From positions 21,454,501 to 21,518,500 of the forward strand of contig AP031353.1 of NCBI GenBank assembly GCA_037833965.1: a DNA stretch of 64,000 nt, read 5' to 3'. The notes under the pieces are model-generated. The model was not told the DNA's origin. It worked only from the letters and a program-made list of their open reading frames with translations, and did no database searches. Origin of the DNA: Marchantia polymorpha subsp. ruderalis (Eukaryota; Streptophyta; Marchantiopsida; Marchantiales; Marchantiaceae). Below are positions 22,091-57,800 of the stretch, one piece after another. The stretch's first letter is position 1; each line of letters begins with the position of its first letter. The translations under genes were made by a program, and so were the position numbers.

Positions 22091-22091
22091 C

Positions 22092-26121: not shown

Positions 26122-26179
26122 TCATTGGCGACCATCATTGGAAGATTCCAGAATCTCTAGCTTTGTAGCCTAGACAGCT

Positions 26180-38114: not shown

Positions 38115-38122
38115 GACTGTCA

Positions 38123-39030: not shown

Positions 39031-40022
39031 GTCACTCCCAGAAATACTGCAAGTGTCCACTCGGAGCTCACTTGGAGGTCGCACAGTGCAGCGTAACACA
39101 CACACACACACACACACACCTGAAACTACAGAAACACAACCCAGGGATCCGTTAGGACCTCTACTCAAGATTTCAGGGGGAAAGTCTCTCGAAAGTACAC
39201 TTAGCGAAGCTGCGCGTAGTGACTCCCAACTCCGGCTTTTACAACACTTCCACTAGCTTGCTGCTAGCGTAGGGAACCCGGGTTGGACTTCCTACTTCGG
39301 ATCGAAGTCACTCTTACGAGGTGAACAACACTCTCAACTCACAAAACACGCAGAGAACACAGGTGCGCACAGAAGGACTCACTGAGAAACATTCCAGTAA
39401 CACACCATAACAGTATATTGAAGAGTTTGGATTCTTAGGCACTTGTCATTCCCAGAAATACTACAGGGGTTACCCTGAAGGTACCTGCTGCAGCGTAACC
39501 TGAATTTACAACCAAGGCTTACACGGAGTAGCAAAACTTCACTTTGGCATTCAGGGGAAAAATACCGAAGGAGTACAATCAGAAACAACCACTTAAAGGT
39601 GTAAGGGGGAAAATGTTCAAGTATCTAACTCGTCACTGGCTCTGAGCATCGGCAATCACCCGCAGGTGTAGATCCGAACTACTCAAGTCTCTAACCAATG
39701 TACTAGCTCTGAACATTCGGCCGAAGGCCTTCAGCTACACGATGCGGAACGCTAAGGTGTAGCTCCTCTTGCGTGGTGACAGAACTAAGGACACAAACAC
39801 GCAGAGAAAATGAGTTCCTGATTTGCACTTCCGAAATTGGGAAAGATCCCAAGGCAAGACGCCTTGAACTACTTTATACCTTCTAAGTCCTAACTAACAC
39901 TACACTTCACTACGCTACGCGCCGGCACGGAACCACGCTACACTACACTCCGCGGAACCTGTGCTTCGCCTCCTGCGCGACGGACTGCTGCGCTCTAACT
40001 CCCTATCCTGCCAGTCCTCAGC

Positions 40023-41800
40023 TCAATTGCGCAGTCCCAATCGCCGCAACACCGCGGAAACCTTCGTCTCAAGGGTGGACATGGTGTCCCGCGACTTCGA
40101 CAGAAAAGAATCCAGCTTCTTCGCTACCCGCCGCCGACTCCGACTGTCACCCGTCAACAACCCGGCTGCACGAAGCTCTGAATCACGCAATGTGAGTCTC
40201 TCTTGCGCCGCCACTTCCCAGTGGGCGTAGCCCTTGAGACAGTGGGCGACTCGCCTCGCCATCTCTTCCTTCGTGCGATCTGCCTCTCGCCGGCGATCGT
40301 CTTCAATTACTACCAACTGCGATTCGGCCTCCCCATGCTGTGCTCTCAATTCTCCGCACTCCGACTGCAGCCTGCGGATTAATTCCTCATCTGCCTATCG
40401 TGCGAGCTGACACTGCTCCAACAACCGCCTCTGTCGCACGAGCTCCACTGACAGAACCTGATTCTGAGTCTTCTCAGAAATCATGCTTCCGTGGCCTTCA
40501 CCAGATCCTTTGTGAGTTCTTCCAGTCTCCCATTCTTCACCTTGTCGTAGTGGGTGTACGTTCTCCGAATGAGATTGTACTGACCCCACAAGCATTCATG
40601 CTTCTCCTGCAGTTCCTTAAGTTCCCGGTCCACTCGAGCTAGCAGCTTGCTGGTGTGGACTTTAGTGCGAGTTCGCATGCGCACTAATTCGACGTAGGAA
40701 CCAGGCTGGCGAGGATCCGCGTACTTATCCATCTTGCGATCCAAGTACCTCAGCAGAGGTACTACCTACTCACAGAGCGCCGCCGCCGGCGCACCAACTA
40801 TTTCTTCCTCCTCCTCCTCCTCGTTGGATCCCGATCCCGACACTGATTCCGTGGATCCTCCTTCTTCATCATCATCCGAAGGGAGGATTTCGGTCGCCAT
40901 TGATTGCGTTGGCGACTGGCCTGAGTGGGGCTGCGAGTGGTCTGCGTGTTCTGCCGCCGATGGTGCTCTTGCAGCCTCGCTGCTTCCTGCTAAAATGTCC
41001 AAGGCGGTGGGTGAATGCGGCCGTGCCACATCCCCATCGTCCGCCTATCGTGCGTCGATCGTAACTCCCTCGCCGTCGGCGTCCACCGCCGAAGGTGATC
41101 GCGCGGAATGTGTCTGCGCGGGGTGCAATTGTGCATTGCGCACGCGAATTTCATCCTGCGGATAGACAATCCGCTCCTCCGTTAGGTCCTGCTCCCTCGA
41201 TCGGTCCTGCGCGAGAGATGCGTCCGGCCTACGTATAGGCGCAAATCCCGGCGCGTTATCCGCCGAAGTCGCAGCGCCGAAGGCGTCTACCGCCGAAGGT
41301 GATAGGGCCGAAGGCCGCCCGCCCGATGTCCCTTGGCCCGAAGGGCCTTGCGCCGAAGGCGCAAATCCCGGCGCTCTGTCCACCGGAGGGTCTTGCCCCG
41401 AAGGCCCTTGAGCCGAAGGCGGATCTTCTGCCGGCTCCTTCCTCTTCCTACGTTGTACCGGGGGTGAGTCCTTCCTACGCGTAGGCAGGATTGGAGGAGG
41501 TGATTGAGAGTTCCCCCCTTCTCCTCGAATGCGTGCTGTCGCATCACTCTGTGCAGGATGCTCGCCTAGTGAACTGGAGCTCCGGCCAAGATGAGCTCCA
41601 CAAAAGAAACCTGCCACAAGGTGATGTATGAGGTGCGGTGTGGCTGCAGCAATTGCAGCAGCGCTGCCGCTAAAGTTCGGCGAAAGCGATCTTTGTAGTC
41701 GCGGGTCTTGTACCCATTCTTGGTAGACCTCATGGGTGACATGGGTGCGCAGCGCCAAAGGCGGATTTCTTGCCTTGCGCGCTACACTCGTTCGTACCAC
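40023..41800 (-). pseudogene. family B LTR ORF, broken
   Basis: Recognisable blocks read in order on the minus strand. Near 41,735-41,560: NGYKTRDYKDRFRRTLAAAL, LLQLLQPHRTSY and FVELILAGAPVH, then a stop. Next come MRQHAFEEKGGTLNHLL, a Pro/Ser/Ala repeat region, HSPTALDILAGSSEAA, VVPLLRYLDRKMDKY and GSYVELVR, and after a frameshift between 40,481 and 40,349 the coiled coil with HCLKGYAHWEVAAQERL and KLDSFLSKSRDTM. It is homologous throughout to the 45,523 ORF. Confidence 0.7.
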
Positions 41801-42815
41801 TCTTCGGCCAATCCCCCTCCGCCGAAGGCGATCGTCCGCGCATCGGACAAAAGTTGAACTCCCTTCTGCATAGACGGAATCCCCGGCGGAATCTCCGCCG
41901 GCGCGGAACTTCTACTGCCTGTGCGTAGGCGCTCGCCTACGCGTAGGCGAGTTCCGTCCGCGCTGCTGCGCTGGCGCCGAAGGCGTTGACCGCGGTCAAC
42001 AGGCTCCGTCCAATCTGTCCATTTCTCGCCTCTCCGTCGGCGCTCTTGTCGCCGTAACTCCGTCCGACCGAAGGCGCACTCATCCGTTTTGTCCGTACAG
42101 TCCGTACGGTCCGTACAGATTTTACCACTCCGGTGGATCCTCGCCCGTCCGCGCTGTTGCGCTGGCGCGGAAGGTGCCGTACAATTTCTAACCCTGAAGG
42201 CGTATTTCTAGGGCCGAAGGCGGATTTCCCGCCGACGCCGAAGCGCCTGTGCGTAGGCGGTCTTCGCTCGTCCGCCTGGGCAGAGGTTTCCTCGCCTACG
42301 CGTAGGCGACATTCGCGGCGGACATCGCGCCGACGTCAAACCCTATTTTGCCTACGCGTAGGCGAACTGCCTTCGTCCGCGCATAGGACAAACTTTCCTC
42401 GCCTACTCGTAGGCGAGAAGCTGAGTATCTTGCGACCTTCATAACTCCCGGAGTCCTCATCCGTTCGTGGCGTTCTTGGGCTCGTTAGAATCAGCGCGTT
42501 GAGCTCTTTTCAACAAGACCCTAACCAAGTCAAGGCATTCGGGAATTGACCAAGTTCTGAAGGATTCCTCTAGCGCCGAAGGCGGATTTTGCGCCTTGCG
42601 CCAAAGGGGTTATTCCTTCAGAGCCCGCATGTAGGGTGGTGTTCGTCCCCGACGTTGCACCCAACTCCTGGATTCTACGAGTTCTCTCGAGAATCTCTGC
42701 GATCTTCCGATTTCACTCTGTTTTGATGCACCGAAGGCTATTTACACTGCTGCCGCGGTACAGTTTTCCAAAAATGTTTTAATTTCCTCAAAAATACCAA
42801 AAGTGGGGTACCACA

Positions 42816-42828
42816 TGCTCCCCTCCTC
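42816..42828 (-). other. polypurine tract of the family B element
   Basis: Minus-strand GAGGAGGGGAGCA directly precedes the LTR start at 42,815. It corresponds to the family A tract at 54,813-54,825 and is the expected plus-strand priming site. Confidence 0.8.
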
Positions 42829-42852: not shown

Positions 42853-44166
42853 TCATACGTGATATTTCTTCAACCGCCACCCGTTCACTCGGGTGCCTAA
42901 TAACTCTCCGGTTAAGTCCGCAAGTTGGATGGATCCATTCGAAAAGACTTCGACGACCTTGTATGGTCCCATCCATCTTAGGTGCAGTTTGCCTGGGAAT
43001 CTGGCATGCCTGCTGTCGTAGAGCAGCGCCAAATCGCCCTTCTGCAGGAGTACAGGTTTGATCTTTTTATCGTATCTCTCCTTTCTGCGGAGCTGAATTC
43101 TCCTGGTGCGCTCCTCGGCTTCTCGTCTCCTTTCTTCCAGTACCATGACTTCCTGTAATCTGTAGAGCTGACTCTCCTCCGCACTCACCCTCTATAGGTC
43201 CAACGTTCGTTGGGTGGGTACTTCGAATTCGATCGGGAGGATCGGATGTTGACCATACACCAGAAAGTATGGTGTCTGTTTCGTCGTAATCTTCTCAGCT
43301 GACCGGTACGCCCACAGAGCGGCTGCTAACTTCGTATCCCAGTCGTAAGCGTGGTTTACCGTGACTTTGAGCAATATTTTACACAACAGACTATTGGACT
43401 TCTCCGTCAATCCATTCGCCTTGGGATTGTATGGGGTAGTCTTCCGGTGCTTGATGTGAAAATGCCGTGTCAGATCTTCGATTATCTGGTTCAAAAAGTG
43501 TGTGCCTCGGTCGCTGACTAGCTCTAAAGGACATCCGTAGCGCGTGATGATCGATTCGAACAAAAAGGCTGCTACTGTGGCTGCATCATCTCTTCTCGTG
43601 GCCTTGGCCTCCACCATCTTGGTGGCGTAGTCCGTAGCTACCAGGATGTAGCGCCTTCGTGTGTTCCTAGTCACTGGTTGTATTGGCCCTACGAAGTCGA
43701 TGCTCCACTTCTCGAAAGGTGCTAGAGGCATGATGGGAGTCAGGGGCCACCGTGTTGTAGGCGTTGGTCTCCCCGTCCTCTGGCAACTATCGCATTTTCG
43801 GATGTAATCGAGAACATCCTTAAACATGGTCGGCCACCAATACCCTGCATTTACAATCTTCGTGACTGTATTCCGGGTGGCATAGTGTCCACCCGCATCT
43901 TTGGTGTGCATCGCGCTTACTACCCTTGGGACCTCGGATTCCTCCAGGCATCTGCACAAACGTTCGTCTGCCATCTTCTTGAACAAAACTCCCTGTTGTA
44001 GTTGGTACGGGCCCGCCTTATGAATAAAGACAGTCCTTTGTTCTAAGTCCATGCCCTCGGGACACTGAAGCGTTAGCAGATATCGGTACAGCTCTGCATA
44101 GCGGGACTACTGCCCCGCAGACAACTGAAACAGCTGTTCGTCCGGAAAGTCGTCCACCAGTTCCTC
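42853..44166 (-). pseudogene. family B pol, 3' part (integrase)
   Basis: Minus-strand continuation of the family B pol after the family A insertion point. It has LEQRTVFIHKAGPYQLQQGV, the HHCC finger (MHTKDAGGHYATRN ... CDSCQR), WSIDFVGPIQP, LVSDRGTHFLN, NGLTEKSNSLL and, after an in-frame stop near 43,189, the C-terminal RWMGPYKVVEVFSNGSIQLA ending at 42,853. It aligns closely with the intact family A integrase. The TAG near 44,109-44,111 and the stop near 43,189 show that it is dead. Confidence 0.8.
44162..44166. repeat. target-site duplication, left (TCCTC)
   Basis: TCCTC precedes the 5' LTR of element A. The same five bases follow its 3' LTR at 59,697-59,701. It lies inside the family B pol frame. 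Confidence 0.9.
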
Positions 44167-45522
44167 TGTGGTAACACACTTTTTGTTTTTTTTGCAGAAT
44201 TTAAACAATTTTAGAAAACTAGTACCAAAGCAGTGTTTGTAGCTAGAGAAGGGTACGCTAAATAGAGTGGACTGATGAGATCGTCACGAGGGCACAAAGA
44301 ATCACGTAGTCGGATGTACCGACGCCAACGTCTTCGGCGCCTTCGGCAAAAGCTCCTTTTTGAGGTGTCTCTATTCACGCGCCTCTAGCGTATAAGGAAG
44401 CTACGCTTCCGGCGCAGACACCTCAGGAGGAGGTTTTGCTAAAGACGTCAGGAGAAGGGCCCGGACCTCTAAAGGCATCCGACCATGAGTGCGCCTTCGG
44501 CGAAGCGCCGCTAGCGCGAAAAGGGAAAACCTTCATAACAATCGGGATACACGGTAGATCCAGTTGGTTGAAGTTGCATTAGAAAGAGCTCGGGATGCTC
44601 GTTCTAACGAGTCCAAGAGCGTCGGAGATGGATCAGGAATGGAGAAGTTATGAGCGTCGGAAAACTCGTAGCCGGACATGCGCCGTTCGCGCTAGGGTTC
44701 ACAGCCGGAAAGGATTCCCGTACGCCCTCGGCGATGCGCCTTCGGTGGAATCACGCGCTCATAGGAGGAAACCCACTCAGAGTCGGAAGCGCCTTTGGCG
44801 GCTGTTCATGGAAGGAAAGCGCCGGTCGGATGTACGCCTCCGACGTGGCGCTGACGGCCGGATGCGCTGGCATGAGTTGTGCTGGCGGATATGCGCCGGC
44901 AGCAATGGACGAGGCATAAAGGACAAAATAGGCGGTACGACTGCGCGCCGGCGTAATTCGATCCGACTGGATGTGCGCCTCCAGCAAGGCGCCGACGGAT
45001 AATGAACGCACCAGCGGCGACACGCCTCCGGAGAAGGGCGGGTTAGGAAAAGACAACAGGGCCGACGTATACCCTGCAGCGGACTCGAGTCCGGAAGGTG
45101 GTGGCGGCGGGAGAATTCAACGTTTAAGCATGCGAATGCGCGCAATGCGGAGACGTGAATTCGCGCATGCAAAGGGCGAACCGTTAAGCCGTATAGCCGG
45201 CTGCGTACGTTGCAACCAGTAAAGAACGTTGGACGTTCTTGAAATCGGAGAAGAAAAGACTGCGCTCCAGTCTCATTCTCTCATTCTTGACTTTGCAATT
45301 TCCAGTTCCAAGATTACGCGCAAGGGCGGAGCGACCTGCAGTGAGAGTAGAGAGTGCGGAGACGAGTTGCACAAGGATCTTGGCGGACCTTGAAAGAATT
45401 GGGAGTAGCGATCTTGAACGAGCGCAGAGAGAGTGAGCAGTCAGTGCTTGAGTGGCCGACGCGCAGTCGCGAGTGTGAGAGAGCGGGCGAAAGGGAGAAC
45501 GTTTGTGTGTGCAGGCAACGCA

Positions 45523-48078
45523 ATGTCGAAGGTTCCCCAGCTGCGAGTGTCTCCACTCAGGGTGCCGCAGATCGGTCTACGCGCATTTCAAGATGTGCTG
45601 ACGAGGCTGAAGCTCGATTTTCTCCTCTGGGGGTGGAATTGGACATGTCCGGAGATGGTGCGCGAGTATCTGCAAGAGAGACACAAGCCTTCTCGCGGAT
45701 TTCGCCCACACCCAGAGAGATGGGACATTTGCAATTGGGCGCAGGTGTTGGGCAGGTGTGCCGGCGAGGAAGGGGATCTCCTCTTCGAGGCCGACAGCGT
45801 GAAAGTGTCCCAGGAGGAAGAAGTCTCTTACAATGAGCTCTTCAAGGTGGCTAGACATCCCAAGAACGGTTTCCGGACACGGGATTACAAGGATCGATTG
45901 CGGAGAAATGTCGCGACGGCATTGCTGCAGATATTGCAGCCGACCAAGACCGCTTACATGCATGGTTGGCAGGTAGAGTTCGTGGAGCTAGTGTTGTCAG
46001 GAGCTCCGGTGCATTGGGCACGGCTCCTGTGGAAGGTGACGCGCCAACATGCGCAAGAAGAGAGGGGAGGAACGCTCAATCATCTATCGCCTTACTTAAT
46101 CGTGTTTTACCGGGCGATGGGATGTTTGACGAATGCTGAGAAAACTCGGTTTCCGCAGCTGACCCGGACTTATCCAGGTAGATATTCGAGGGAGGCCGAA
46201 GTGGACACGGATCCGGACGAGGAACCTGCCAGTACGCCTCCGGCTCCGGCTCCAGCCAGAGCAGCAGAAGAACGTCGAAGTGAGCGCATTCCGCGCAAGC
46301 GGAAGTGGGATGAGAGACCTGAGGACAGGCAGCCGGAAGTGCCAGCTGCGCCGACTCGTGGTCGGCCCACCCCCGAGCCTCACAGTCGACCAAAACAGAG
46401 GGCACGCAGAATGCCAACTGTTACTGAGGAGACCAGGCGAACTCCGACCCGGCGGAATCTCACACAGGAAGAGATAATTGCTCAGGTCCTAGGGAAGACG
46501 GCAGAAACCTCTGCACAGAAGGCACCACGGCCTTCGGGAGGAGATGGACGGACTGACGACCGGCCGACTGCGAGTCGGATGACTGAAGGTCGACAAGCGG
46601 AAGGAAGGCCAACTGAACGGCGCGTTGAACCGGACAGCAGGCCGGAAGCAGAAGAGAGTTTGGCTGACGAGCCAACAATCCTCAGAGGGTCGTCTTCGGC
46701 GGAAGGCACTTCTGGAAGAACGCCACCAGCAAGCAGGCCAAGTGGAGTCAAGACGCGCAGGGTGTATCCGACTCCCAGTCGGACAACTGCTGGTCGGCCG
46801 ACTGCGAGTCGGACAACAGAGAGTCAGCCGGATTCGCCGACTGCGAGACGGATGGGGCCAACGACGAGTGTGCGAACGCCTTCGGCGGACGCACCTTCAG
46901 CAAGGACACCTTCCGCGCAGATTGCGCCGGAAGGACAGGCAGCAGAAGCGGGCGGATCAAGAGTGACAAAAGTCACTGCGGCGTCGACCCCTTCACAAAC
47001 CGAAGATCAAGCCGGAACAGGGGCTCAAGCAGTGGGATCTCCCACTGCCCTGGATATTTTAGCAGGCAGTGGAGCAGCAGTCGCAGCGGAAGCTGCTGCG
47101 CGCCACAGTTCCAGGGAGTCGCCAAGGGATTCGGTGGCGACTGAGATCCTCGAGACTGAGGATGAGACGAGCTCGGAAGAGCAAGAAGAGGATTCGGTGC
47201 AGAAAACGCCAACAGGGGTGCTGTGCGAACAGATAGTTCCACTCCTGCGATATCTAGATCGCAAGACATCCAAATACGCAAGTGCCTTAAAACCGCAGTC
47301 TTATGTGGAGACAATCAGGCGAAGGACGAGGAGCAAGGTGGCAAGGTGGGCCTCTAGGTGCGGAGTATATGTGGATAGGAACACCGCCCTCCGACAACAC
47401 CTGGCGGTCACCCAGAAGCTATACCAAGCCTTGCAGCAGCAGAAGGAGGATGCGGCGACGAAGAGTCAGGCGGAGGCCGAGCTAATACGGGCAAAGATCG
47501 AGTCGGACTTGCAGGAGGAGCGGAGACAGAACAAAGTCCTAGCAGCCGAGCTTGCGCGCCAGACGCGCGCCTTAGAAGAAAGTCAAAGAGCCCGCAAGGA
47601 GGATGAGGAGTTGTTGCGCAACTTGCAAACCGAGTGCTCGGATTTGAGGGCACAACGTGCGGAATTAGAAATGCAGCTGGCAGAGGTGGAGAGCAGCTGC
47701 AGGGCACGAGGAGAGTTGGCGGCACGGGTGACTCGTTGTCTAAACGGATACACCCATTGGGAGGTGGCAGCTCAAGAGAGGGTTACACTCCGGGAGTTCG
47801 AGCTTCGGGCGGCGGCCTTGACGGAAGGTGACAGTCGGAGTCGGCGGCGAGTGGCGAGAAAATTAGAAACTTTCTTGTCGGGTGCGCGCGACACTATGGC
47901 GCACTTGCAGTCGGAAGTCACTGCAGCGCTCCGACGCCTGGGGTTACGCAGCCGGTCGGAAGACTGGCAAGGTAGAGACAGTAAGCGGAGCAGTCCGGCG
48001 CGCAGGAGGCGCAGCACCGGATCTGCTGAGTGCAGTAGAGTAGTTTGGTTTCGCGCAGATGCTGCGAGTGGTAGATAG
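45523..48078 (+). CDS. LTR (U3)-encoded ORF, 851 codons, 5' copy
   Basis: The protein is unassigned. Residues 1-215 form a conserved globular-looking region (LRAFQDVLTRLKLDFLLWGW, PEMVREYL, KNGFRTRDYKDRLRRN, LLQILQPTKTAY, FVELVLSGAPVHWARLLW). Its pattern weakly recalls the 'putative plant transposon protein' domain of Athila-type elements (inference). Residues 216-560 are Pro/Ser/Thr/Arg-rich with PTASR-type repeats, ending in TALDILAGSG. Then come CEQIVPLLRYLDRK (about 563), a heptad-rich coiled coil (about 620-735) and a basic tail (NGYTHWEVAAQER, RRRVARKLETFLSG). No signal peptide or membrane span. Start chosen at MSKVPQ, where related copies begin to align; the frame is open from 45,433. 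It lies upstream of the LTR TATA box, so its own expression needs another promoter or read-through transcription. Confidence 0.8.
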   Translation: MSKVPQLRVSPLRVPQIGLRAFQDVLTRLKLDFLLWGWNWTCPEMVREYLQERHKPSRGFRPHPERWDICNWAQVLGRCAGEEGDLLFEADSVKVSQEEEVSYNELFKVARHPKNGFRTRDYKDRLRRNVATALLQILQPTKTAYMHGWQVEFVELVLSGAPVHWARLLWKVTRQHAQEERGGTLNHLSPYLIVFYRAMGCLTNAEKTRFPQLTRTYPGRYSREAEVDTDPDEEPASTPPAPAPARAAEERRSERIPRKRKWDERPEDRQPEVPAAPTRGRPTPEPHSRPKQRARRMPTVTEETRRTPTRRNLTQEEIIAQVLGKTAETSAQKAPRPSGGDGRTDDRPTASRMTEGRQAEGRPTERRVEPDSRPEAEESLADEPTILRGSSSAEGTSGRTPPASRPSGVKTRRVYPTPSRTTAGRPTASRTTESQPDSPTARRMGPTTSVRTPSADAPSARTPSAQIAPEGQAAEAGGSRVTKVTAASTPSQTEDQAGTGAQAVGSPTALDILAGSGAAVAAEAAARHSSRESPRDSVATEILETEDETSSEEQEEDSVQKTPTGVLCEQIVPLLRYLDRKTSKYASALKPQSYVETIRRRTRSKVARWASRCGVYVDRNTALRQHLAVTQKLYQALQQQKEDAATKSQAEAELIRAKIESDLQEERRQNKVLAAELARQTRALEESQRARKEDEELLRNLQTECSDLRAQRAELEMQLAEVESSCRARGELAARVTRCLNGYTHWEVAAQERVTLREFELRAAALTEGDSRSRRRVARKLETFLSGARDTMAHLQSEVTAALRRLGLRSRSEDWQGRDSKRSSPARRRRSTGSAECSRVVWFRADAASGR

Positions 48079-48111
48079 GATAGCGTAGTGCTAGTTAGGA
48101 TCTTTTGAGAG

Positions 48112-48120
48112 TATAAAGTA
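48112..48120 (+). promoter_or_regulatory. LTR TATA box (5' LTR)
   Basis: GAGTATAAAGTAG lies about 35 bases after the U3 ORF stop. The equivalent TATAAAGTA is conserved in family B and C LTRs (reverse of about 39,870 and 23,300). It is the likely start of genomic RNA about 30 bases downstream, which places the ORF in U3. Confidence 0.6.
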
Positions 48121-49057
48121 GATCAAGGCGTTTTGCCTTGGGACTCTTCCAGTTTCGGAAGTGCAGATCAGGAACTCACTTTCTTGGCGTGTTTGTGCAT
48201 TTTGGTCCTGGCACCACGTAGAGAAGCTGCAGCATAGCGAAGTTACCGTATGTTGTAGTTGAAGGCCTTCGGCTGAATGTTCAGAGCTAGCACCCGGTTA
48301 GAGACTTGAGTAGTGCGGATCTGCACCTGCGGGTGATTTCTGATGCTCAGAGCCGGCTGCGAGTTAGAGACTTGAACAGTTCCCCCTTACTCCTTCGAGT
48401 GACATATCCTGATTGTACTCCTACGGGAAGTTTCCCCTGAATGCCAATGTGAAGTTTCATTACTTCGTGTAAACCTTGGTTTGTAATTCAGGTTGTGTGT
48501 GTGTTACTGGATCGTGTTTTCAGTAAGTTCTCAGTCGGGTCTGCACTCCCTGCGTTTTGTGTGATAGTCGAGGGTGACGTCCACGGCGTACGTAGAGGCT
48601 TCGTTCCGAAGTGAGAAGTCCAGTCCGGGTACCCCCGCTAGTTCCTGGCGGAAGGGCAGTAAAAGCCGGAGTGGGAGGCACTTCCTGTAGAACCTCTGAG
48701 TGAACTTACGAGACACTTTCCTCCTGAAATCCGAAGCGGAGGTCCTGACCGACCTCCGAGTTGTGCTTTTTGCCAGTTTCAGGTGTGTGTGTGTGTGTGT
48801 TGAGTGACCAAGCTGTACCGTGCATCCTCCGAGCATCCTCCGAGTTGAGATCCTCCTCCGAGTCGAGCCTCCGAGTCGAGCACTGCAGTATTTCTGGGAG
48901 TGACAGTCGTCTAGAATTCAAACTCTACAAAAGTCAGTTAAACGTGACACTTTTACTCTGTGTGTTGCCTCTGTCCCTGTGGGTTCGATCTTTTTACCAC
49001 CATACTGCAGTTTTAGCCTTTGGTGGGTTATTACATAAGGAGCCGACAACTTCTTTT

Positions 49058-49075
49058 TGGCGCCGCTGCCGGGGA
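49058..49075 (+). other. primer-binding site, tRNA-Asp type
   Basis: TGGCGCCGCTGCCGGGGA starts 22 bases after the LTR end. It is complementary to the 3' end of plant tRNA-Asp (TCCCCGGCAACGGCGCCA) with one mismatch at the tenth base. tRNA-Asp priming is known for Athila-type elements. Confidence 0.8.
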
Positions 49076-49118
49076 CAGTGCGTCAACACCAGAATACTTG
49101 AGCAGCAATGCTCGGTGA

Positions 49119-51947
49119 ATGTCGACGAGCGATAGTGTGGGAAACCTGAGTGCGAGAGCCACACGGAAACTCCGTCGAGATTCAGAAAAAGCCGTGGAAA
49201 CAAAACGGCGAACTAAAAAGAAGACCCCCGGTGAAGACTCTGCAGAAAGATCGCCATCACCGACCACTGGAAGACAAAGGCGTTTCAGTTCACCTACTGA
49301 GAGCATTGAGCTAACAGTTCTGTTGGACATCCCTCCGACAGGAACTCTTCCTGAGTTTGGCCAACCTAGGATCAGTCCGTCGACAGGATCACCGATGGCA
49401 GAACATCAAGCCAATCTCCGCCATGTGTTTTCCCAACCTACCACCAAACATTCGTATCCAAGATACACGGGAACGGGCGACGACGATGATGCAGATTCAT
49501 ACATAAAGCTCTTCGAGTCTGTCTCCATCGCCAATCGTGAGACCAGTGATGAAGACAGACTACGAATCTTTCCTAGCCTGCTACGCAGACGAGCGCGTAG
49601 CTGGTACAACCATGAGAGCACCGACCCCACTGGCATCCGGACCTGGGCTCAGCTCAAGGAAAAGTTTCTGAGGCGGTTCCGCGAACTCGGATATGACAGT
49701 CGAGTTCTGACCCGGCTTCGAAATCTTCGACGCGAGCGGAAGGAGAATCTTCGAGACTACACTGAGAGATTCCAAGACCTCCTAGATCGAATTCCGAAGA
49801 CAGGCCCAGGAGAACCATACTCGGTACAACAGGCAGTGGATTGGTATGTGACAGGGCTCTCAAGAGAAATGGAGACCTTCTGTAGGAGAGGCAAGACTGA
49901 CACAATCCAAGATGTGATAGCTTCCGCGGAGACCTTTGAGACGTCAACCCTTGACACTCGAAGACGTGACCGACGGTCGACGAAGAAGAAGTCGCAAGGC
50001 GGACGTCGGAAGAGAAGGAACTCGCCTTCCTCGACAGAAGAATCAAGCTCCTCCGAATCAAGTTCTTCCTCGGAAGAGGAAGAGGACTCGTCATCTTCAG
50101 AAGAAGAAAGACGGAAGAAGAAACGCAGTGCGATCAAGAAGAAGGATCGAGGTAAGGGAATCCCAGTGAAGACTCAAGGGGACATCGCAGCCAAGGTAGA
50201 CAACCTGGTGAAGAATTTTGCGGACCTGAAAGTTCATGTAGTGGGAGGCCAAGATCGACGTAAATCACCTGCGAGACAACGAGCGAATCTCTGGTGTACT
50301 ACGTGCGGACAGGTGGGACATGCCAACACGGAGTGCATGTCCGCGCGGCCATCTTACCCAGTGAATGCGGTCGAATGGACACCACAGTGGGAGAACCCCA
50401 TGTATTATGCTGAGCCACCTATGTATTATGCTGAGCAGGTTGAGGACACCGCCTACTCGGTACAGACAGCTCCAGCTACAACTCCGAACCCACCGGTGCA
50501 TATACCGCGCTTTGTTCCGAGGGAAATGGCGGGTACACTCCCACCAAGACGCATGGCACCTCCAGGCAATCACAACCGACCTCGACCACAATTCGATGGT
50601 TGCTACAACTGCGGAGACATGGGGCATTACGCGCCAAGTTGTCCCCACCCGAGGAAGCCAATGGGGGATGCACCATTGTGCAGCAATTGCAAGAAGTCCG
50701 GACATACAGCAGCTGAATGTGATCAGCCCCAACTCCCTAGGCCAGCCGTGCGTTTCGTATCAACACCTGGCAAGGAAGAAGTGCAGGTCAACCAGGTAGA
50801 ACTGAGTCTGGACCCAGCTGAAGGAGACGAAGTATGGCCAGAGGAAGAAGTAATGTGCGGTCGGGTAGAAACCCGAAGTTCGAAGAGGAGAGGAGAAGGC
50901 CACGAGGACACTCGCCGCCTCGAGCGTAGGGAAGACAGGCGGAAGTCTAAAGAAGTTAGAGAAGGCCAAAGAAGAAGGCCGGGTACACCTCCGGCTATGA
51001 GAAACACCCAGCCGGAGCAGAACTCAGAAAAGGCGGACAGGTATTCAGAAGAGTTCCGGACTCGAGATTACCTTCCGGACATCAAAGATGAGGTGAGTCA
51101 CCTCATCAAGGAAGCACTGGGCGCCGGAATGACATCCGACGACCGGAAGGCGGTTAGGCCTCCTACACCACTTCCGACCGCGAGTACAGGGAGACTTCCG
51201 GCTGTGACTTCCAACACTCCCTACGACATAGTGAAAGACATGGGGAGCCAGAGGGCAAATATTTCCTTCCACCAGTTGTTGGAAGACAATAAGACGTACA
51301 GGAGGATGCTGATGCTTTCGTTGCGCCGACCACGCAAACCCCGAAAAGAGAAACTTCCGACTGTGTACAGAGTGGAAGGAGGAGACCTGGGACCTCCAGA
51401 GATCGAGGTAGAGATCGGAGGCTGCGTCATACAGAAGGTACTTGTGGACTCCGGCTCGGGCGTGAATATCATGACCGAGGAGACAGCGAACTCCTTGGGG
51501 TTCCAGACCTTCGAGCCTACATCCCGAGTATTGCGACTGGCCGATCAAACACGCAGAATGCCACTAGGAATGTTGAGCAATGTGAGAACCAACATTGGAG
51601 GAGTGGACTTTCAACTGTCCTACATAATACTGCAACCTCTGATGAAGAAAGGTTATGATGTGCTGCTTGGCAGACCGTGGCTATACGATGCCAAAGCAAG
51701 GTGTGACTGGAGTAGGAAGAGATTACAGTTCCGTAGCCCTGCGGACCCTCCGACTGTCATTACCGTACCGTGGACCAAGGTACCCCATGAGGGCGAAACA
51801 CCTCCCACCACCTCCGGTTACACAACCGGAGGGGAGACCAGCTCATCATGCACTTCAGAGACCGAAACGTCGGAAGAATTTGTGGGCTACGTCACTTGCT
51901 GCTCTATTGAGGAGGAAGGAGACGAGGTGTATCCGGATGACGAATAG
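49119..51947 (+). CDS. gag-protease polyprotein of element A, 942 aa
   Basis: The gag core around residues 120-265 includes ESVSIANRETSDEDRLRIFP, RARSWYN and WAQLKEKFLRRFRELG. A Ser/Glu-rich acidic then Lys-rich linker follows (about 300-350). Three CCHC zinc knuckles occur at about 392-405 (CTTCGQVGHANTEC), 495-508 (CYNCGDMGHYAPSC) and 521-534 (CSNCKKSGHTAAEC). The retropepsin active site is VDSGSGVNIM (about 776-785), with a conserved ILLGRPWL-like VLLGRPWL later. The start ATG is 44 bases after the primer site and fits family B alignment from there. It ends at TAG 51,945-51,947, followed in frame by pol. It packages RNA and processes the polyprotein in cytoplasmic particles. Confidence 0.92.
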   Translation: MSTSDSVGNLSARATRKLRRDSEKAVETKRRTKKKTPGEDSAERSPSPTTGRQRRFSSPTESIELTVLLDIPPTGTLPEFGQPRISPSTGSPMAEHQANLRHVFSQPTTKHSYPRYTGTGDDDDADSYIKLFESVSIANRETSDEDRLRIFPSLLRRRARSWYNHESTDPTGIRTWAQLKEKFLRRFRELGYDSRVLTRLRNLRRERKENLRDYTERFQDLLDRIPKTGPGEPYSVQQAVDWYVTGLSREMETFCRRGKTDTIQDVIASAETFETSTLDTRRRDRRSTKKKSQGGRRKRRNSPSSTEESSSSESSSSSEEEEDSSSSEEERRKKKRSAIKKKDRGKGIPVKTQGDIAAKVDNLVKNFADLKVHVVGGQDRRKSPARQRANLWCTTCGQVGHANTECMSARPSYPVNAVEWTPQWENPMYYAEPPMYYAEQVEDTAYSVQTAPATTPNPPVHIPRFVPREMAGTLPPRRMAPPGNHNRPRPQFDGCYNCGDMGHYAPSCPHPRKPMGDAPLCSNCKKSGHTAAECDQPQLPRPAVRFVSTPGKEEVQVNQVELSLDPAEGDEVWPEEEVMCGRVETRSSKRRGEGHEDTRRLERREDRRKSKEVREGQRRRPGTPPAMRNTQPEQNSEKADRYSEEFRTRDYLPDIKDEVSHLIKEALGAGMTSDDRKAVRPPTPLPTASTGRLPAVTSNTPYDIVKDMGSQRANISFHQLLEDNKTYRRMLMLSLRRPRKPRKEKLPTVYRVEGGDLGPPEIEVEIGGCVIQKVLVDSGSGVNIMTEETANSLGFQTFEPTSRVLRLADQTRRMPLGMLSNVRTNIGGVDFQLSYIILQPLMKKGYDVLLGRPWLYDAKARCDWSRKRLQFRSPADPPTVITVPWTKVPHEGETPPTTSGYTTGGETSSSCTSETETSEEFVGYVTCCSIEEEGDEVYPDDE

Positions 51948-51953: not shown

Positions 51954-54788
51954 GCAGCCGGACTGGGCAGAAGCGAGATCAGTCACACAGAGGGGATTGT
52001 TGACCCGAGTGATTGCTGCGAACTGCAACTCAGTCCAGGTAAAGGCTTGAAGGTGTCAAGCCAGGTACAAGGAGAAGAGTTGAACAGGGTACAGGCGTTT
52101 CTTCGCCAGTATGAGGATGTCTTCGCATGGAAGATTGAAGACATGAAAGGCATACCTGCAAGGTATGGAGAGCACAGAATCGACTTGTTGGACGAGGCAG
52201 TTCCAGTTCGCCAACGCCAATACAGGCTCAACCCAAAATATTCATTATTGGTGAAGGACGAAATCGATAAGTACCTGAGCGCAGGAATTATCTACCCGGT
52301 ACTCAGTAGCGAGTGGGTGTCGCCTATCGTGATCGTGCCCAAGAAACTGACGGGTAAGATCCGGGTGTGTCAGGACTTCAGGAAGCTGAACGCAGCAACG
52401 CGGAAGGACCATCACCCTCTTCCTTTCACGGACTCTATTCTGGACCATGTAGCAGGGCATGAATGCTACAGTTTCCTAGACGGATTCTCCGGCTACAACC
52501 AGGTGTCCATCAGGGAACAGGACAAGGACAAAACAACCTTCACGACCGACTGGGGAACCTATGCTTATCACAAGATGCCGTTCGGTCTGTGCAACGCGCC
52601 AGCGACGTTCCAGCGGATGATGACAAACATCTTCCAAGAGCACCTGAGGAAGTTCCTAGAAATTTTCATCGACGACTTTTGTGTCTTCGGTAAGAGGTCG
52701 GAGCACCTTGACCATCTTCGACAAACGTTCGACAGATGTAGGGAGAGCAGCTTGTCCTTACACCCTGAGAAATGTTTTTTCTTCATGACCAGCGGAATCC
52801 TGCTAGGGCACCGAGTTTCGTCCGATGGCATTGCAGTGGATGTAGAGAAGGTGAAGATTATTCTCGAACTGCAGCCGCCAACGAATCTGCGTGAGTTGAG
52901 GGCCTTCCTTGGCCATGTAGGTTATTACAGAAGGTTCATAAATATGTACGCCATCTTGGCAGCCGATCTGACGAAGCTGCTTAAGAAGGATGAACCCTAT
53001 GTGTGGGGCAAGGAGCAACAGCTGGACTTTGAAACGCTCAAAGCCAAACTGACGACTGCTCCGGTTCTGAGAAGTCCGGATTGGAACAGACCTTTCCATG
53101 TCTATGTAGACACGTCGGCGTTTGCAATCGGGGTGGTTCTCAGTCAGAAGGACGACAACAAGAAAGACTACCCGATTTACTTCGCGAGTCGTCAGTTGTC
53201 AGCAGCAGAGAAGAAGTACACGACAACTGAGAGGGAGGCGTTGGGAATGGTGTACTCCTGTAAGAAGTTCCGACATTATTTGATCTGCTATGAGTTCGTG
53301 TTTCATGTAGATCATTACGCCTTACAGCACCTGGTCAAGAAGGCGGATCTGTCCGGACGAATTGCCAGGTGGGTACTACTGCTGCAGGAATTCACCTACA
53401 CTGTACAGACACGGAAAGGCGTTCACCATGAGAACGCGGACTACCTCTCCCGACTATGGACCGAACCCATAGAGGAGGAAGTAGTGGATGATTTCCCCGA
53501 CGAACAACTTTTTCAGTTGTCCGCCAGCCATGAGTCCAGGTACGCGGACTTATACAGGTTTCTGCTCACACTCCAATGTCCGGAAGGATTGGATGCGGAG
53601 CAGCGCACAGTCTTCGTTCATAAAGCGGGGCCTTACCAGCTTCAACAGGGGGTCTTGTTCAAGAAAATGGCAGACGAGAGGCTGTGCAGATGTCTAGAGG
53701 AGTCTGAAGTCCCGCGAGTTGTCAAAGCCATGCACACGGAAGACGCTGGTGGTCACTACGCCACCAGAAATACAGTGACCAAAATTGTGAATGCAGGATA
53801 CTGGTGGCCGACGATGTTCAAAGATGTACATGACTACGTTCGCAAATGCGACAGCTGCCAGAGGACGGGAAGGCCGACTCCGACCACGAGATGGCCTCTT
53901 ACACCAATCATGCCATTGGCACCATTTGAAAAATGGGGGATCGACTTCGTGGGACCAATACAACCTGTCACTAAAGGCACGCGCAGGCGCTACATATTGG
54001 TAGCAACAGACTATGCGACCAAGATGGTGGAGGCAGAAGCCACAAGGCACGACGACGCAGCCGCAGTAGCACGGTTCCTATTCGAATCAATCATCACACG
54101 CTACGGGTGCCCCCTAGAAATAGTCAGTGACAGAGGGACGCACTTTCTGAATCAGGTGATAGAGAGTTTGACGCGGCACTTCCAGATTAAGCATCGAAAG
54201 ACTACTCCATACAACCCCAAGGCAAATGGTCTGACAGAGAAGTCCAATGGATTACTCTGTAAGATACTCCTCAAGGTGACTGTAAACCATGCTCATGACT
54301 GGGACACCAAGCTACCGGCCGCCTTATGGGCATATAGAACGGCAGAAAAAGTCACCACCAGGCAAACACCTTACTTCCTAGTTTATGGGCAGCATCCGAT
54401 CTTACCCATCGAATTCGAGATACCTACGAAGAGGACCTTAGATCAGAGAAGGCTGGACGCGGAGGAAAGTCAGGCATATCGACTGCAAGAGGTAATGGCA
54501 CTGGAGGAAAGACGTCAAGAAGCCGAAGATCGAACAAAGCAATTACAACTCAGGCGGAAGGAGAAGTACGATCGAAGACTCAAACCAGTACTGCTGGAGA
54601 AGGGCGATTTGGCCCTGCTATACGATAGCAGACATGCTAGATTTCCAGGCAAGCTCCACTTGAGGTGGATGGGACCTTACAAGGTGATAGAAGTTTTTCC
54701 AAATGGATCCATCCAACTCGCAGATCTCACGGGAGAATGGTTAGGCACCCGCGTGAACGGATGGCATCTGAAGAAATACCACGTGTAA
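51948..54788 (+). CDS. pol of element A: reverse transcriptase, RNase H, integrase
   Basis: The frame is continuous with gag-pro after the TAG; the first in-frame ATG is at 52,047 (913 codons), but homology starts before it (TEGIVDPSD is shared with family B), which supports readthrough rather than a new start. RT: KIRVCQDFRKLNAATRK, FLDGFSGYNQ, MPFGLCNAPATFQ and FIDDFCVFG (YVDD-box variant). RNase H: FHVYVDTSAFAIGVVL, TTEREALGMVY and FVDHYALQHL. Integrase: HHCC finger (near 53,730-53,860), WGIDFVGPI, IVSDRGTHFLN and NGLTEKSNG (D, D, E) and a GPY-like RWMGPYKVIEVFPNGSIQL. No chromodomain follows; the frame stops 37 bases before the 3' LTR. It copies genomic RNA to DNA and inserts it. Confidence 0.93.
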   Translation, partial: QLAAGLGRSEISHTEGIVDPSDCCELQLSPGKGLKVSSQVQGEELNRVQAFLRQYEDVFAWKIEDMKGIPARYGEHRIDLLDEAVPVRQRQYRLNPKYSLLVKDEIDKYLSAGIIYPVLSSEWVSPIVIVPKKLTGKIRVCQDFRKLNAATRKDHHPLPFTDSILDHVAGHECYSFLDGFSGYNQVSIREQDKDKTTFTTDWGTYAYHKMPFGLCNAPATFQRMMTNIFQEHLRKFLEIFIDDFCVFGKRSEHLDHLRQTFDRCRESSLSLHPEKCFFFMTSGILLGHRVSSDGIAVDVEKVKIILELQPPTNLRELRAFLGHVGYYRRFINMYAILAADLTKLLKKDEPYVWGKEQQLDFETLKAKLTTAPVLRSPDWNRPFHVYVDTSAFAIGVVLSQKDDNKKDYPIYFASRQLSAAEKKYTTTEREALGMVYSCKKFRHYLICYEFVFHVDHYALQHLVKKADLSGRIARWVLLLQEFTYTVQTRKGVHHENADYLSRLWTEPIEEEVVDDFPDEQLFQLSASHESRYADLYRFLLTLQCPEGLDAEQRTVFVHKAGPYQLQQGVLFKKMADERLCRCLEESEVPRVVKAMHTEDAGGHYATRNTVTKIVNAGYWWPTMFKDVHDYVRKCDSCQRTGRPTPTTRWPLTPIMPLAPFEKWGIDFVGPIQPVTKGTRRRYILVATDYATKMVEAEATRHDDAAAVARFLFESIITRYGCPLEIVSDRGTHFLNQVIESLTRHFQIKHRKTTPYNPKANGLTEKSNGLLCKILLKVTVNHAHDWDTKLPAALWAYRTAEKVTTRQTPYFLVYGQHPILPIEFEIPTKRTLDQRRLDAEESQAYRLQEVMALEERRQEAEDRTKQLQLRRKEKYDRRLKPVLLEKGDLALLYDSRHARFPGKLHLRWMGPYKVIEVFPNGSIQLADLTGEWLGTRVNGWHLKKYHV

Positions 54789-54812
54789 ATGTTCGCGTGG
54801 GCGCTCACAATT

Positions 54813-54825
54813 GAGGAGGGGGGCA
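54813..54825 (+). other. polypurine tract of element A
   Basis: GAGGAGGGGGGCA abuts the 3' LTR start at 54,826; expected primer for plus-strand DNA synthesis. Confidence 0.85.
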
Positions 54826-57800
54826 TGTGGTAACACACTTTTTGTTTTTTTTGCAGAATTTAAACAATTTTAGAAAACTAGTACCAAAGCAGTGTTTGTA
54901 GCTAGAGAAGGGTACGCTAAATAGAGTGGACTGATGAGATCGTCACGAGGGCACAAAGAATCACGTAGTCGGATGTACCGACGCCAACGTCTTCGGCGCC
55001 TTCGGCAAAAGCTCCTTTTTGAGGTGTCTCTATTCACGCGCCTCTAGCGTATAAGGAAGCTACGCTTCCGGCGCAGACACCTCAGGAGGAGGTTTTGCTA
55101 AAGACGTCAGGAGAAGGGCCCGGACCTCTAAAGGCATCCGACCATGAGTGCGCCTTCGGCGAAGCGCCGCTAGCGCGAAAAGGGAAAACCTTCATAACAA
55201 TCGGGATACACGGTAGATCCAGTTGGTTGAAGTTGCATTAGAAAGAGCTCGGGATGCTCGTTCTAACGAGTCCAAGAGCGTCGGAGATGGATCAGGAATG
55301 GAGAAGTTATGAGCGTCGGAAAACTCGTAGCCGGACATGCGCCGTTCGCGCTAGGGTTCACAGCCGGAAAGGATTCCCGTACGCCCTCGGCGATGCGCCT
55401 TCGGTGGAATCACGCGCTCATAGGAGGAAACCCACTCAGAGTCGGAAGCGCCTTTGGCGGCTGTTCATGGAAGGAAAGCGCCGGTCGGATGTACGCCTCC
55501 GACGTGGCGCTGACGGCCGGATGCGCTGGCATGAGTTGTGCTGGCGGATATGCGCCGGCAGCAATGGACGAGGCATAAAGGACAAAATAGGCGGTACGAC
55601 TGCGCGCCGGCGTAATTCGATCCGACTGGATGTGCGCCTCCAGCAAGGCGCCGACGGATAATGAACGCACCAGCGGCGACACGCCTCCGGAGAAGGGCGG
55701 GTTAGGAAAAGACAACAGGGCCGACGTATACCCTGCAGCGGACTCGAGTCCGGAAGGTGGTGGCGGCGGGAGAATTCAACGTTTAAGCATGCGAATGCGC
55801 GCAATGCGGAGACGTGAATTCGCGCATGCAAAGGGCGAACCGTTAAGCCGTATAGCCGGCTGCGTACGTTGCAACCAGTAAAGAACGTTGGACGTTCTTG
55901 AAATCGGAGAAGAAAAGACTGCGCTCCAGTCTCATTCTCTCATTCTTGACTTTGCAATTTCCAGTTCCAAGATTACGCGCAAGGGCGGAGCGACCTGCAG
56001 TGAGAGTAGAGAGTGCGGAGACGAGTTGCACAAGGATCTTGGCGGACCTTGAAAGAATTGGGAGTAGCGATCTTGAACGAGCGCAGAGAGAGTGAGCAGT
56101 CAGTGCTTGAGTGGCCGACGCGCAGTCGCGAGTGTGAGAGAGCGGGCGAAAGGGAGAACGTTTGTGTGTGCAGGCAACGCAATGTCGAAGGTTCCCCAGC
56201 TGCGAGTGTCTCCACTCAGGGTGCCGCAGATCGGTCTACGCGCATTTCAAGATGTGCTGACGAGGCTGAAGCTCGATTTTCTCCTCTGGGGGTGGAATTG
56301 GACATGTCCGGAGATGGTGCGCGAGTATCTGCAAGAGAGACACAAGCCTTCTCGCGGATTTCGCCCACACCCAGAGAGATGGGACATTTGCAATTGGGCG
56401 CAGGTGTTGGGCAGGTGTGCCGGCGAGGAAGGGGATCTCCTCTTCGAGGCCGACAGCGTGAAAGTGTCCCAGGAGGAAGAAGTCTCTTACAATGAGCTCT
56501 TCAAGGTGGCTAGACATCCCAAGAACGGTTTCCGGACACGGGATTACAAGGATCGATTGCGGAGAAATGTCGCGACGGCATTGCTGCAGATATTGCAGCC
56601 GACCAAGACCGCTTACATGCATGGTTGGCAGGTAGAGTTCGTGGAGCTAGTGTTGTCAGGAGCTCCGGTGCATTGGGCACGGCTCCTGTGGAAGGTGACG
56701 CGCCAACATGCGCAAGAAGAGAGGGGAGGAACGCTCAATCATCTATCGCCTTACTTAATCGTGTTTTACCGGGCGATGGGATGTTTGACGAATGCTGAGA
56801 AAACTCGGTTTCCGCAGCTGACCCGGACTTATCCAGGTAGATATTCGAGGGAGGCCGAAGTGGACACGGATCCGGACGAGGAACCTGCCAGTACGCCTCC
56901 GGCTCCGGCTCCAGCCAGAGCAGCAGAAGAACGTCGAAGTGAGCGCATTCCGCGCAAGCGGAAGTGGGATGAGAGACCTGAGGACAGGCAGCCGGAAGTG
57001 CCAGCTGCGCCGACTCGTGGTCGGCCCACCCCCGAGCCTCACAGTCGACCAAAACAGAGGGCACGCAGAATGCCAACTGTTACTGAGGAGACCAGGCGAA
57101 CTCCGACCCGGCGGAATCTCACACAGGAAGAGATAATTGCTCAGGTCCTAGGGAAGACGGCAGAAACCTCTGCACAGAAGGCACCACGGCCTTCGGGAGG
57201 AGATGGACGGACTGACGACCGGCCGACTGCGAGTCGGATGACTGAAGGTCGACAAGCGGAAGGAAGGCCAACTGAACGGCGCGTTGAACCGGACAGCAGG
57301 CCGGAAGCAGAAGAGAGTTTGGCTGACGAGCCAACAATCCTCAGAGGGTCGTCTTCGGCGGAAGGCACTTCTGGAAGAACGCCACCAGCAAGCAGGCCAA
57401 GTGGAGTCAAGACGCGCAGGGTGTATCCGACTCCCAGTCGGACAACTGCTGGTCGGCCGACTGCGAGTCGGACAACAGAGAGTCAGCCGGATTCGCCGAC
57501 TGCGAGACGGATGGGGCCAACGACGAGTGTGCGAACGCCTTCGGCGGACGCACCTTCAGCAAGGACACCTTCCGCGCAGATTGCGCCGGAAGGACAGGCA
57601 GCAGAAGCGGGCGGATCAAGAGTGACAAAAGTCACTGCGGCGTCGACCCCTTCACAAACCGAAGATCAAGCCGGAACAGGGGCTCAAGCAGTGGGATCTC
57701 CCACTGCCCTGGATATTTTAGCAGGCAGTGGAGCAGCAGTCGCAGCGGAAGCTGCTGCGCGCCACAGTTCCAGGGAGTCGCCAAGGGATTCGGTGGCGAC

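What the first reader, a model, noticed from the sequence alone, without database searches (positions are those of the whole stretch)
45523..48078. A full-length protein gene carried inside the LTR itself
Each 4.87-kb LTR of element A contains an intact 851-codon ORF upstream of the LTR TATA box, i.e. in U3. Most LTRs are non-coding; known plant extra ORFs (Athila after pol, Ogre before gag) are internal. Because it is in the LTR, each insertion carries two copies and each solo LTR keeps one. The product has an N-terminal conserved domain, a long disordered linker and a C-terminal coiled coil, with no match I can name securely. This is the best candidate for an undescribed system.
Basis: partly seen in the sequence, partly recalled or inferred. 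Interest (0 to 1): 0.9.

Follow-up and report, generated by a model that had tools for sequence, protein, structure and literature searches.

The report
Conserved gene inside retrotransposon end repeats
In what appears to be the liverwort Marchantia, a family of jumping elements carries an extra protein gene inside its end repeats instead of in its middle; the gene shows signs of being kept by selection and survives intact in some leftover single repeats, but what its protein does is unknown.

Summary
Observation confirmed. Element A is a young Ty3/Gypsy-type element (LTRs 44167-49035 and 54826-59696, 99.9% identical, TSD TCCTC), in Marchantia polymorpha judging by protein hits. Each LTR holds the same intact 851-codon ORF. 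TATAAAGTAGWTCAAG follows the ORF in several diverged LTRs, so U3 is the best reading; no start site is mapped. The ORF is under purifying selection: dN/dS 0.26 against a solo LTR whose ORF is 76% identical (0.10 in the N-terminal domain), with no such codon signature in the flanking LTR; in a small ORF-blind sample replacements are about 0.37 of expectation, though only 3 of 8 copies are intact. Among the 53 best-scoring genome copies 44 lack stops, and three TSD-flanked solo LTRs keep intact copies. 82 homologues (75 named, all M. polymorpha) share no Pfam domain. Anatomically it is a sense accessory ORF after pol, but the polypurine tract precedes it, so it became part of U3, as in MMTV sag. 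I saw no plant precedent in an open-licence library. New variant of a known kind; a nuclear coiled-coil accessory protein is inferred, no transcript or protein seen. In passing: Gag-Pro and Pol share a frame split by UAG-CARYYA in two diverged elements.

The parts
44162..44166 (.). Target site duplication TCCTC (left copy; right copy 59697-59701)
   Evidence: Read directly
44167..49035 (+). 5' LTR of element A (TGTGGTAACAC...GGGTTATTACA)
   Evidence: Self-comparison and ends
44167..45522 (+). Non-coding first part of U3; no codon-position pattern between A and solo1
   Evidence: 86/93/87 differences by position mod 3, p 0.85; transversions 34/39/21, p 0.064
45500..45515 (+). Candidate splice acceptor CGTTTGTGTGTGCAG|G; the CAG ends 8 nt before the ATG. 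Solo1 has CGTCTGTGTGTGCAG|G (6.8 bits), 14 nt before its ATG
   Evidence: 8.6 bits, 5th of 28 sites of at least 5 bits in 52047-58740 (3' LTR copy); matrix approximate and recalled
45523..48078 (+). LTR ORF, 851 codons
45523..46227 (+). Residues 1-235: conserved N-terminal domain, helical in a low-confidence model, dN/dS 0.10
46228..47202 (+). Residues 236-560: linker rich in A, R, T, P, E and S, with a basic PRKRKW patch at residues 257-262
47203..48075 (+). Residues 561-851: C-terminal region; AlphaFold2 on residues 570-851 gives one helix of 177 residues (coiled coil), pLDDT about 98 over its middle
48112..48118 (+). TATAAAG, the conserved core promoter candidate that would make the ORF U3
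48468..48486 (+). Two TGTAA strings: poly(A) signal candidates (role recalled, untested); R would be about 48142-48505
   Evidence: inference
49058..49076 (+). PBS-like TGGCGCCGCTGCCGGGGAC (resembles a tRNA-Asp 3' end, recalled)
49119..51947 (+). gag-pro (Retrotrans_gag, zinc knuckles, aspartyl protease), ending in TAG followed by CAACTA
52047..54788 (+). RT-RNase H-integrase, same frame as gag-pro; no chromodomain or second RNase H found
54811..54825 (+). Polypurine tract TTGAGGAGGGGGGCA, between integrase and the ORF-bearing U3
   Evidence: equivalent before the LTR of element B
54826..59696 (+). 3' LTR of element A
56182..58737 (+). Second copy of the LTR ORF, DNA identical (the copy that would lie in the genomic RNA)
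33243..38116 (-). Solo1: LTR of the A family with near-matching flanks (CAGTC/CAGTT), 78% identical DNA; ORF homologue 36651-34108, 76% identical, 5 stops
39031..42816 (-). 3' LTR of element B, cut short at its end, with broken ORF homologue pieces 41730-39918
29313..32311 (+). LTR copy C with a diverged ORF (30420-31892, 490 codons open)
22318..24214 (-). LTR copy D, 3' part only, with ORF homologue piece 24211-23345 (2 stops)

Best explanation
It is an element-encoded accessory gene in U3 of the LTRs of a Ty3/Gypsy family seen so far in Marchantia. Shown from sequence: the ORF is intact in element A, selected as protein, and followed by the conserved LTR TATA box, also in families that share only 41-47% of the protein. 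Follows from retroviral replication: the genomic RNA carries the gene once, after pol and the polypurine tract, and reverse transcription copies that U3 into both LTRs, so each insertion and each solo LTR starts with a copy. Inferred: the mRNA comes either from a promoter in the first 1.3 kb of U3, or from a spliced subgenomic RNA using an acceptor 8 nt before the ATG, or both. The protein oligomerises through its long C-terminal coiled coil, enters the nucleus through a basic PRKRKW patch, and uses its most constrained part, the N-terminal domain, to bind a nucleic acid or protein partner. It acts in trans on the element's own expression or nuclear steps; countering silencing is one option.
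For: LTR anatomy. Selection: dN/dS 0.256 (CI 0.21-0.32) over 839 codons against solo1. Differences by codon position are 104/115/248 in the ORF (p 1e-18) but even in the flanking LTR (p 0.85 and 0.79); transversions alone give the pattern too (42/38/82), which argues against methylation decay as the cause; N domain 0.10, linker 0.32, C part 0.35; the other two sense frames give 1.49 and 1.18. ORF-blind copies: N:S 0.84 against 2.28 expected, ratio 0.37 (7 usable of 8 fetched, out of 38 full-length R-U5 matches outside the window; sums mine). Place kept. Intact in solo LTRs L003, L004, L006, each with a matching 5-bp TSD. Copy number: all 53 best-scoring copies cover residues 1-851, 44 without stops, 13,650 first-look candidates. 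Coiled coil. Basic motif: of 31 relatives that hold the marker just before the linker, 16 have [KR][KR][KR]W and 26 a looser basic run.
Against: No transcript, start site, splice junction or peptide was seen. The N-terminal model is poor (mean pLDDT 54.9) and matches nothing. Nuclear entry, partner and trans action are inference. The 53 copies are the best-scoring by protein, so their completeness and the low pN/pS among them are biased; single variants too show N:S only 0.44-0.45 of expectation, where decay after insertion alone should give 1, and shared and single variants do not differ (Fisher p 0.29). In the ORF-blind sample 5 of 8 copies are broken. In the distant family 7 of the 8 best loci carry stops, and no LTR start was within reach there, so its LTR placement rests on the downstream order alone. 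Antisense frame 1 also gives 0.355. Two gene models join parts of the ORF to gag (P0009, P0069), which would fit transcription from upstream of the ORF.
Confidence: 0.75

Rival explanations
1. The real transcription start lies upstream of the ORF, so the ORF is in a long R or in U5 and is read as a leader gene before gag, as ORF0 of Retrosat2 or (recalled) ORF1 of Ogre.
For: Two automatic gene models join ORF parts to gag (P0009, P0069). Retrosat2 has an R of 2023 bp with its TATA near the LTR start (passages read). A pyrimidine-rich stretch about 230-255 bp before the ATG is alike in A and solo1.
Against: A TATAAAG with a long conserved flank lies after the ORF in A, B and D and in 7 of 8 loci of distant families; the TATA-like strings at 44391 and 44915 are altered in solo1.
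Confidence: 0.13
2. The ORF is a passenger: a chance open frame or a decaying captured gene without current function.
For: 5 of 8 ORF-blind copies are broken; 7 of the 8 best loci of the distant family carry stops; no shared known domain.
Against: Length against simulations; dN/dS well below 1 with the signal confined to the ORF; ratio 0.37 in ORF-blind copies; a distant copy, L049, has no stop in its matched pieces and an open frame given as 828 aa.
Confidence: 0.05
3. The protein is an env-like or particle-associated product rather than a nuclear regulator: the spliced 3' gene of an env-type layout that happens to be in U3.
For: Position after pol in sense, as in Athila and Bagy2 env-like ORFs, with splicing reported for Bagy2 (PMC7264820); acceptor candidate 8 nt before the ATG.
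Against: The models show a helical domain and coiled coil, and the linker is charged; no env family matched in Pfam. No transmembrane predictor was run.
Confidence: 0.1

Closest known systems
MMTV sag (superantigen gene in U3 of mouse mammary tumour virus LTRs)
   Same: Most of the gene lies within U3 and solo LTRs preserve it (490 of 527 shortlisted sag contigs were taken as solo LTRs; PMC4667437, passages read)
   Different: A retrovirus of mammals; a shorter membrane superantigen (recalled); no Pfam match links them
Sense accessory ORFs between pol and the 3' LTR of plant elements (aORF-3S / eORF-3'F: Athila, SIRE, Bagy2)
   Same: Gene order gag-pol-accessory, same strand, mostly no known domain
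   Different: Those lie in the internal region; here the PPT precedes the gene, so it is present in both LTRs (PMC7264820 parts 1 and 2 of 3 read; PMC6317226 section 13)
Grande gene23 and Retand TRP28 antisense ORFs
   Same: Accessory gene in a large Gypsy element; Grande's product is nuclear and transcribed from a promoter of its own (PMC7264820)
   Different: Antisense, internal, and Retand's carries Transposase_28 (PF04195; PMC11963269, passages read), which did not match here
Retrosat2 ORF0 and Ogre ORF1
   Same: Extra ORF in an element with LTRs over 3 kb; Retrosat2 ORF0 has a higher Ka than its gag-pol ORF
   Different: ORF0 lies upstream of gag-pol and is treated apart from the LTR (PMC3485330, passages read); Ogre ORF1 is recalled

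Membership tests
Ty3/Gypsy LTR retrotransposon | LTRs, TSD, PBS, PPT, gag, protease, RT-RNase H-integrase in that order | tested here: met
Chromovirus | Chromodomain after integrase | tested here: not met
   No chromodomain in the pol ORF at E up to 1
Tat lineage (Ogre, Retand, TatI-III) | Second RNase H (aRH) | tested here: not met
   Only the RT-linked RNase H matched in gag-pro and pol; a diverged aRH below Pfam sensitivity is not excluded
Athila, Phygy or other non-chromovirus lineage | RT/RH/INT phylogeny | not tested
   No reference set at hand
Known plant accessory-ORF domains | Plant mobile domain PF10536, Transposase_28 PF04195 or Athila ORF-1 PF03078 | tested here: not met
   No such match in 9 members, 23 members or 10 further proteins; sequence against profile only, no profile-profile test
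Sense accessory ORF between pol and 3' LTR | Same strand, downstream of pol | tested here: met
Sense accessory ORF between pol and 3' LTR | Lies in the internal region, before the 3' LTR | tested here: not met
   PPT at 54811-54825, ORF inside the LTR
MMTV sag-like U3 gene (way of working) | Protein gene in U3, upstream of the LTR promoter | tested here: inconclusive
   Supported by the conserved TATA box after the ORF; no start site mapped
MMTV sag (homology) | Sequence match to the superantigen family | tested here: not met
   No such Pfam match
Expressed accessory gene | Transcript and protein | not testable with these tools
   No RNA or peptide data

The most novel reading that the evidence does not exclude
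The LTR itself is a mobile gene. Each insertion seeds the genome with a self-contained U3 unit (own promoter, 851-codon gene, element promoter), and solo LTRs, usually dead remnants, go on making a trans-acting nuclear protein that supports or de-silences the whole family. Selection on the gene would then work at family level, and solo-LTR formation would not remove it.
Probability: 0.2. Interest if true: 0.85.

Novelty: new variant of a known kind. Interest (0 to 1): 0.6.

Why it matters
LTRs are ordinarily treated as non-coding control regions. Here a large, selected protein gene lies in U3 in a plant lineage, as sag does in MMTV, apparently through the place of the polypurine tract relative to a 3' accessory gene. 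It helps explain the very long LTRs, means that solo LTRs can be genes, and suggests that annotation pipelines misfile such genes: many pieces sit in the databases as Marchantia 'hypothetical proteins'. It offers a model plant in which the function of a plant retroelement accessory protein could be tested.

Tried and rejected
Tried without result: Pfam on the ORF and its relatives: a few weak matches each in one to three members (lowest E 1.9e-4, Extensin_1, one member), mostly coiled-coil or low-complexity, besides gag and zinc-knuckle matches in the fused models P0069 and P0072. Solved structures by sequence (one match, E 0.45). Foldseek of the weak N-domain model against PDB and viral models (none with E up to 0.001). 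Viral contigs (12 pattern matches, none a relative). Rfam over element A (none at gathering scores). tRNA scan (none). Bacterial promoter scan (not informative for a plant). Homologue searches gave 82 proteins, 75 with names, all Marchantia polymorpha, and 7 unnamed; they score only about 8,000 candidates sharing short words, so distant homologues elsewhere are not excluded. A recalled likeness of the N domain to a 'putative plant transposon protein' family (PF20167) was not borne out by hmmscan and could not be tested profile to profile.

Considered and rejected: chance ORF; captured host gene (no relative outside this set was found, within the limits above); my first reading that 33243-38116 is the 3' LTR of element B (it is a separate solo LTR; B's own LTR is 39031-42816); a splice donor at 48523, below the listing threshold and not kept in D or solo1. 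The low pN/pS among the best-scoring genome copies is biased by how they were chosen, so I rest and the small ORF-blind sample.

Literature: ten searches. For a plant precedent I rest, for Marchantia; none of the listings or passages I saw showed a plant LTR holding a full accessory gene. The library lacks most subscription papers, among them Steinbauerova et al. (recalled; look-up by DOI failed).
Full report
What was checked. The ORF at 45523-48078 is real and intact, 851 codons from ATG to TAG. The repeats that hold it are genuine LTRs: 44167-49035 and 54826-59696, TG...ACA ends, TSD TCCTC on both sides, a PBS-like stretch from 49058 and a polypurine tract ending at 54825. The two LTRs differ by two substitutions and one 2-base indel, none of them in the ORF. 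The longest stop-free run in 1000 simulated LTRs was 413 codons against 886 observed.

Host and element. The window lies in a 241-Mb, 9-contig assembly. Of 82 protein relatives of the ORF, 75 bear a name and all 75 are from Marchantia polymorpha, so I take this as the host. The internal part holds gag with zinc knuckles and aspartyl protease (49119-51947) and RT-RNase H-integrase (52047-54788), without chromodomain or second RNase H at Pfam sensitivity. The element sits in the pol gene of a related element B on the other strand.

Is the ORF in U3? A TATAAAG at 48112, 33 bases after the stop, sits in a block kept in LTR copies A, B and D: TATAAAGTAGWTCAAGGCGTYTTGCCTTGGGA. In the eight best loci found with P0004, whose ORFs are 41-47% identical to A's, TATAAAGTAGTTCAAG again follows the ORF in 7 of 8, and the LTR terminus GGGTTATTACA lies about 960-1,000 bp beyond that TATA in 4 of 8 (L050, L052, L054, L056); no LTR start was in reach in these eight. 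The TATA-like strings upstream of the ORF at 44391 and 44915 are not kept in solo1. So the sequence favours U3. Against this: solo1 has lost about 210 bp around that TATA, LTR copy C keeps only TATAA, L008 lacks TATAAAG, and two automatic gene models fuse pieces of the ORF with gag (P0009 and P0069). No start site is mapped.

Selection. Against solo1 (33243-38116; 76% protein identity, 5 stops) dN/dS is 0.256 with bootstrap interval 0.21-0.32 over 839 codons. Substitutions by codon position are 104/115/248 within the ORF, but 86/93/87 in the upstream and 29/26/24 in the downstream non-coding LTR; transversions alone are 42/38/82 in the ORF, 34/39/21 upstream (p 0.064) and 13/11/8 downstream. 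By part: N-terminal 235 residues 0.10, linker 0.32, C-terminal part 0.35. Other sense frames give 1.49 and 1.18; antisense frames 1.17, 0.355 and 1.33. The list of ORFs of 200 codons or more holds none on the minus strand there. More distant copies in the window have silent sites near saturation, with ratios or intervals from about 0.07 to 0.75. Between A and B, also near saturation, pol is under much stronger constraint (intervals 0.01-0.03) and gag-pro pieces give intervals from 0.04 to 0.25.

Genome copies. All 53 best-scoring copies cover residues 1-851 at 98-100% identity and 44 have no stop; there were 13,650 first-look candidates, of which only the best were scored. Seven groups of hits are spaced by 10,656-10,670 bp, the LTR-to-LTR distance, one of them a run of three. 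I fetched 40 of the 51 copies outside the window and added the window's. After dropping one copy with an indel, 6 same-element partners and 5 near-identical copies, 29 remained, 24 intact, with N:S 0.70 for shared and 1.01 for single variants against 2.28 expected. This set was chosen by protein score and is biased towards few replacements; shared and single variants do not differ significantly (p 0.29). Three of 8 are intact; one (L061) does not align over its first two thirds and was dropped from the counts. The other seven have 135 replacement, 4 stop and 166 silent changes against the window copy, N:S 0.84, which is 0.37 of the expectation (sums mine; changes shared by copies are counted more than once).

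Solo LTRs. L003, L004 and L006 have an LTR flanked by matching 5-bp duplications (CTCCG, ATACA, CTGTC), without the element's PBS or PPT beside it, and an intact ORF; L008 is the same kind (ATTCC) with one stop. So some solo LTRs do keep the gene.

The protein. The N-terminal domain is helical but poorly modelled (mean pLDDT 54.9), without a match in PDB or viral models. The C-terminal part is a single predicted helix of 177 residues, a coiled coil. A basic patch PRKRKW at residues 257-262 recurs: of 31 relatives holding the marker before it, 16 keep [KR][KR][KR]W and 26 a looser basic run. Oligomerisation, nuclear entry and a role in trans are inferred from this.

How it most likely works. 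In the genomic RNA (from about 48140 in the 5' LTR to R of the 3' LTR) the gene would occur once, after pol. Its departure from the common plant 3' accessory ORF is that the PPT precedes it, so plus-strand priming makes it part of U3 and both daughter LTRs receive it (established reverse-transcription logic, inference for this element). An acceptor-like TTTGTGTGTGCAG|G ends 8 nt before the ATG, and solo1 has nearly the same string 14 nt before its ATG (recalled matrix); among 28 sites of at least 5 bits it ranks fifth, and the best site (15.6 bits) lies just inside the LTR start. So a spliced message is possible, as is a promoter in the first 1.3 kb of U3. For MMTV sag, promoters at the 5' LTR U3/R junction, in env and inside U3 have been described (PMC4667437, passages read).

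Comparison with what is known. The plant review of additional ORFs (PMC7264820, parts 1 and 2 of 3 read) treats ORFs of the internal region. The REXdb survey (PMC6317226, section 13 and passages) found extra ORFs in 3372 Ty3/gypsy elements and notes LTRs up to about 5 kb; the word Marchantia does not occur in its main text. Retrosat2 has ORF0 before gag-pol (PMC3485330, passages). I found no plant case of a full accessory gene in the LTR in searches, in an open-licence library only. Hence: new variant of a known kind, with MMTV sag as the working analogue and no homology to it found.

Verdict. A real and selected gene in the LTR, most likely in U3; function unknown in detail. Interest 0.6: the position and its persistence in solo LTRs would surprise a specialist, yet accessory ORFs are common and the U3 idea has a precedent.

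Noticed in passing
51945-51953 (+); element B 61223-61231 (-): gag-pro and pol are in one frame, split by a single TAG followed by CAACTA in A and CAATTA in B, i.e. UAG-CARYYA, the tobamovirus-type readthrough context (recalled). Residues after the stop are alike in A and B, whose pol silent sites are near saturation, and P0069 has W at the stop. Five such strings occur in the window on both strands. Suggests Gag-Pol by stop readthrough.
   Followed up: partly
48494-48499: A lacks about 92 bp that solo1, B and D share here, in the R/U5 region.
   Followed up: partly
8697-16148: Large imperfect inverted repeat with several arm pairs (89-100% alike), and a 211-bp unit in tandem at 13058-13479 with an inverted copy at 13653-13854.
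   Followed up: no
20528-27692: Another Gypsy element (pol pieces 44% and 58% identical to A) with related stretches 20528-22092 and 24216-26122 in opposite orientation; no LTR-ORF homologue within these by tblastn, though LTR copy D (22318-24214) lies between them.
   Followed up: no
G000 contig C1 (5.6 Mb): The smallest contig holds 7 of the 53 scored copies; two sets of three are 0-4 differences apart at spacings of about 340-410 kb, so they look multiplied by segmental duplication; possibly the sex chromosome (inference).
   Followed up: partly
G000:C5:9246393-9270257 and G000:C7:485835-507929: Runs of three LTR parts at 10,656-10,657 bp spacing, suggesting tandem LTR-internal-LTR-internal-LTR arrays.
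   Followed up: no
L049 (G000:C2:26894882-26897311): The deposited model P0004 matches in two pieces in one frame, both free of stops, with an open frame given as 828 aa; the model seems to treat part of the ORF as an intron.
   Followed up: no
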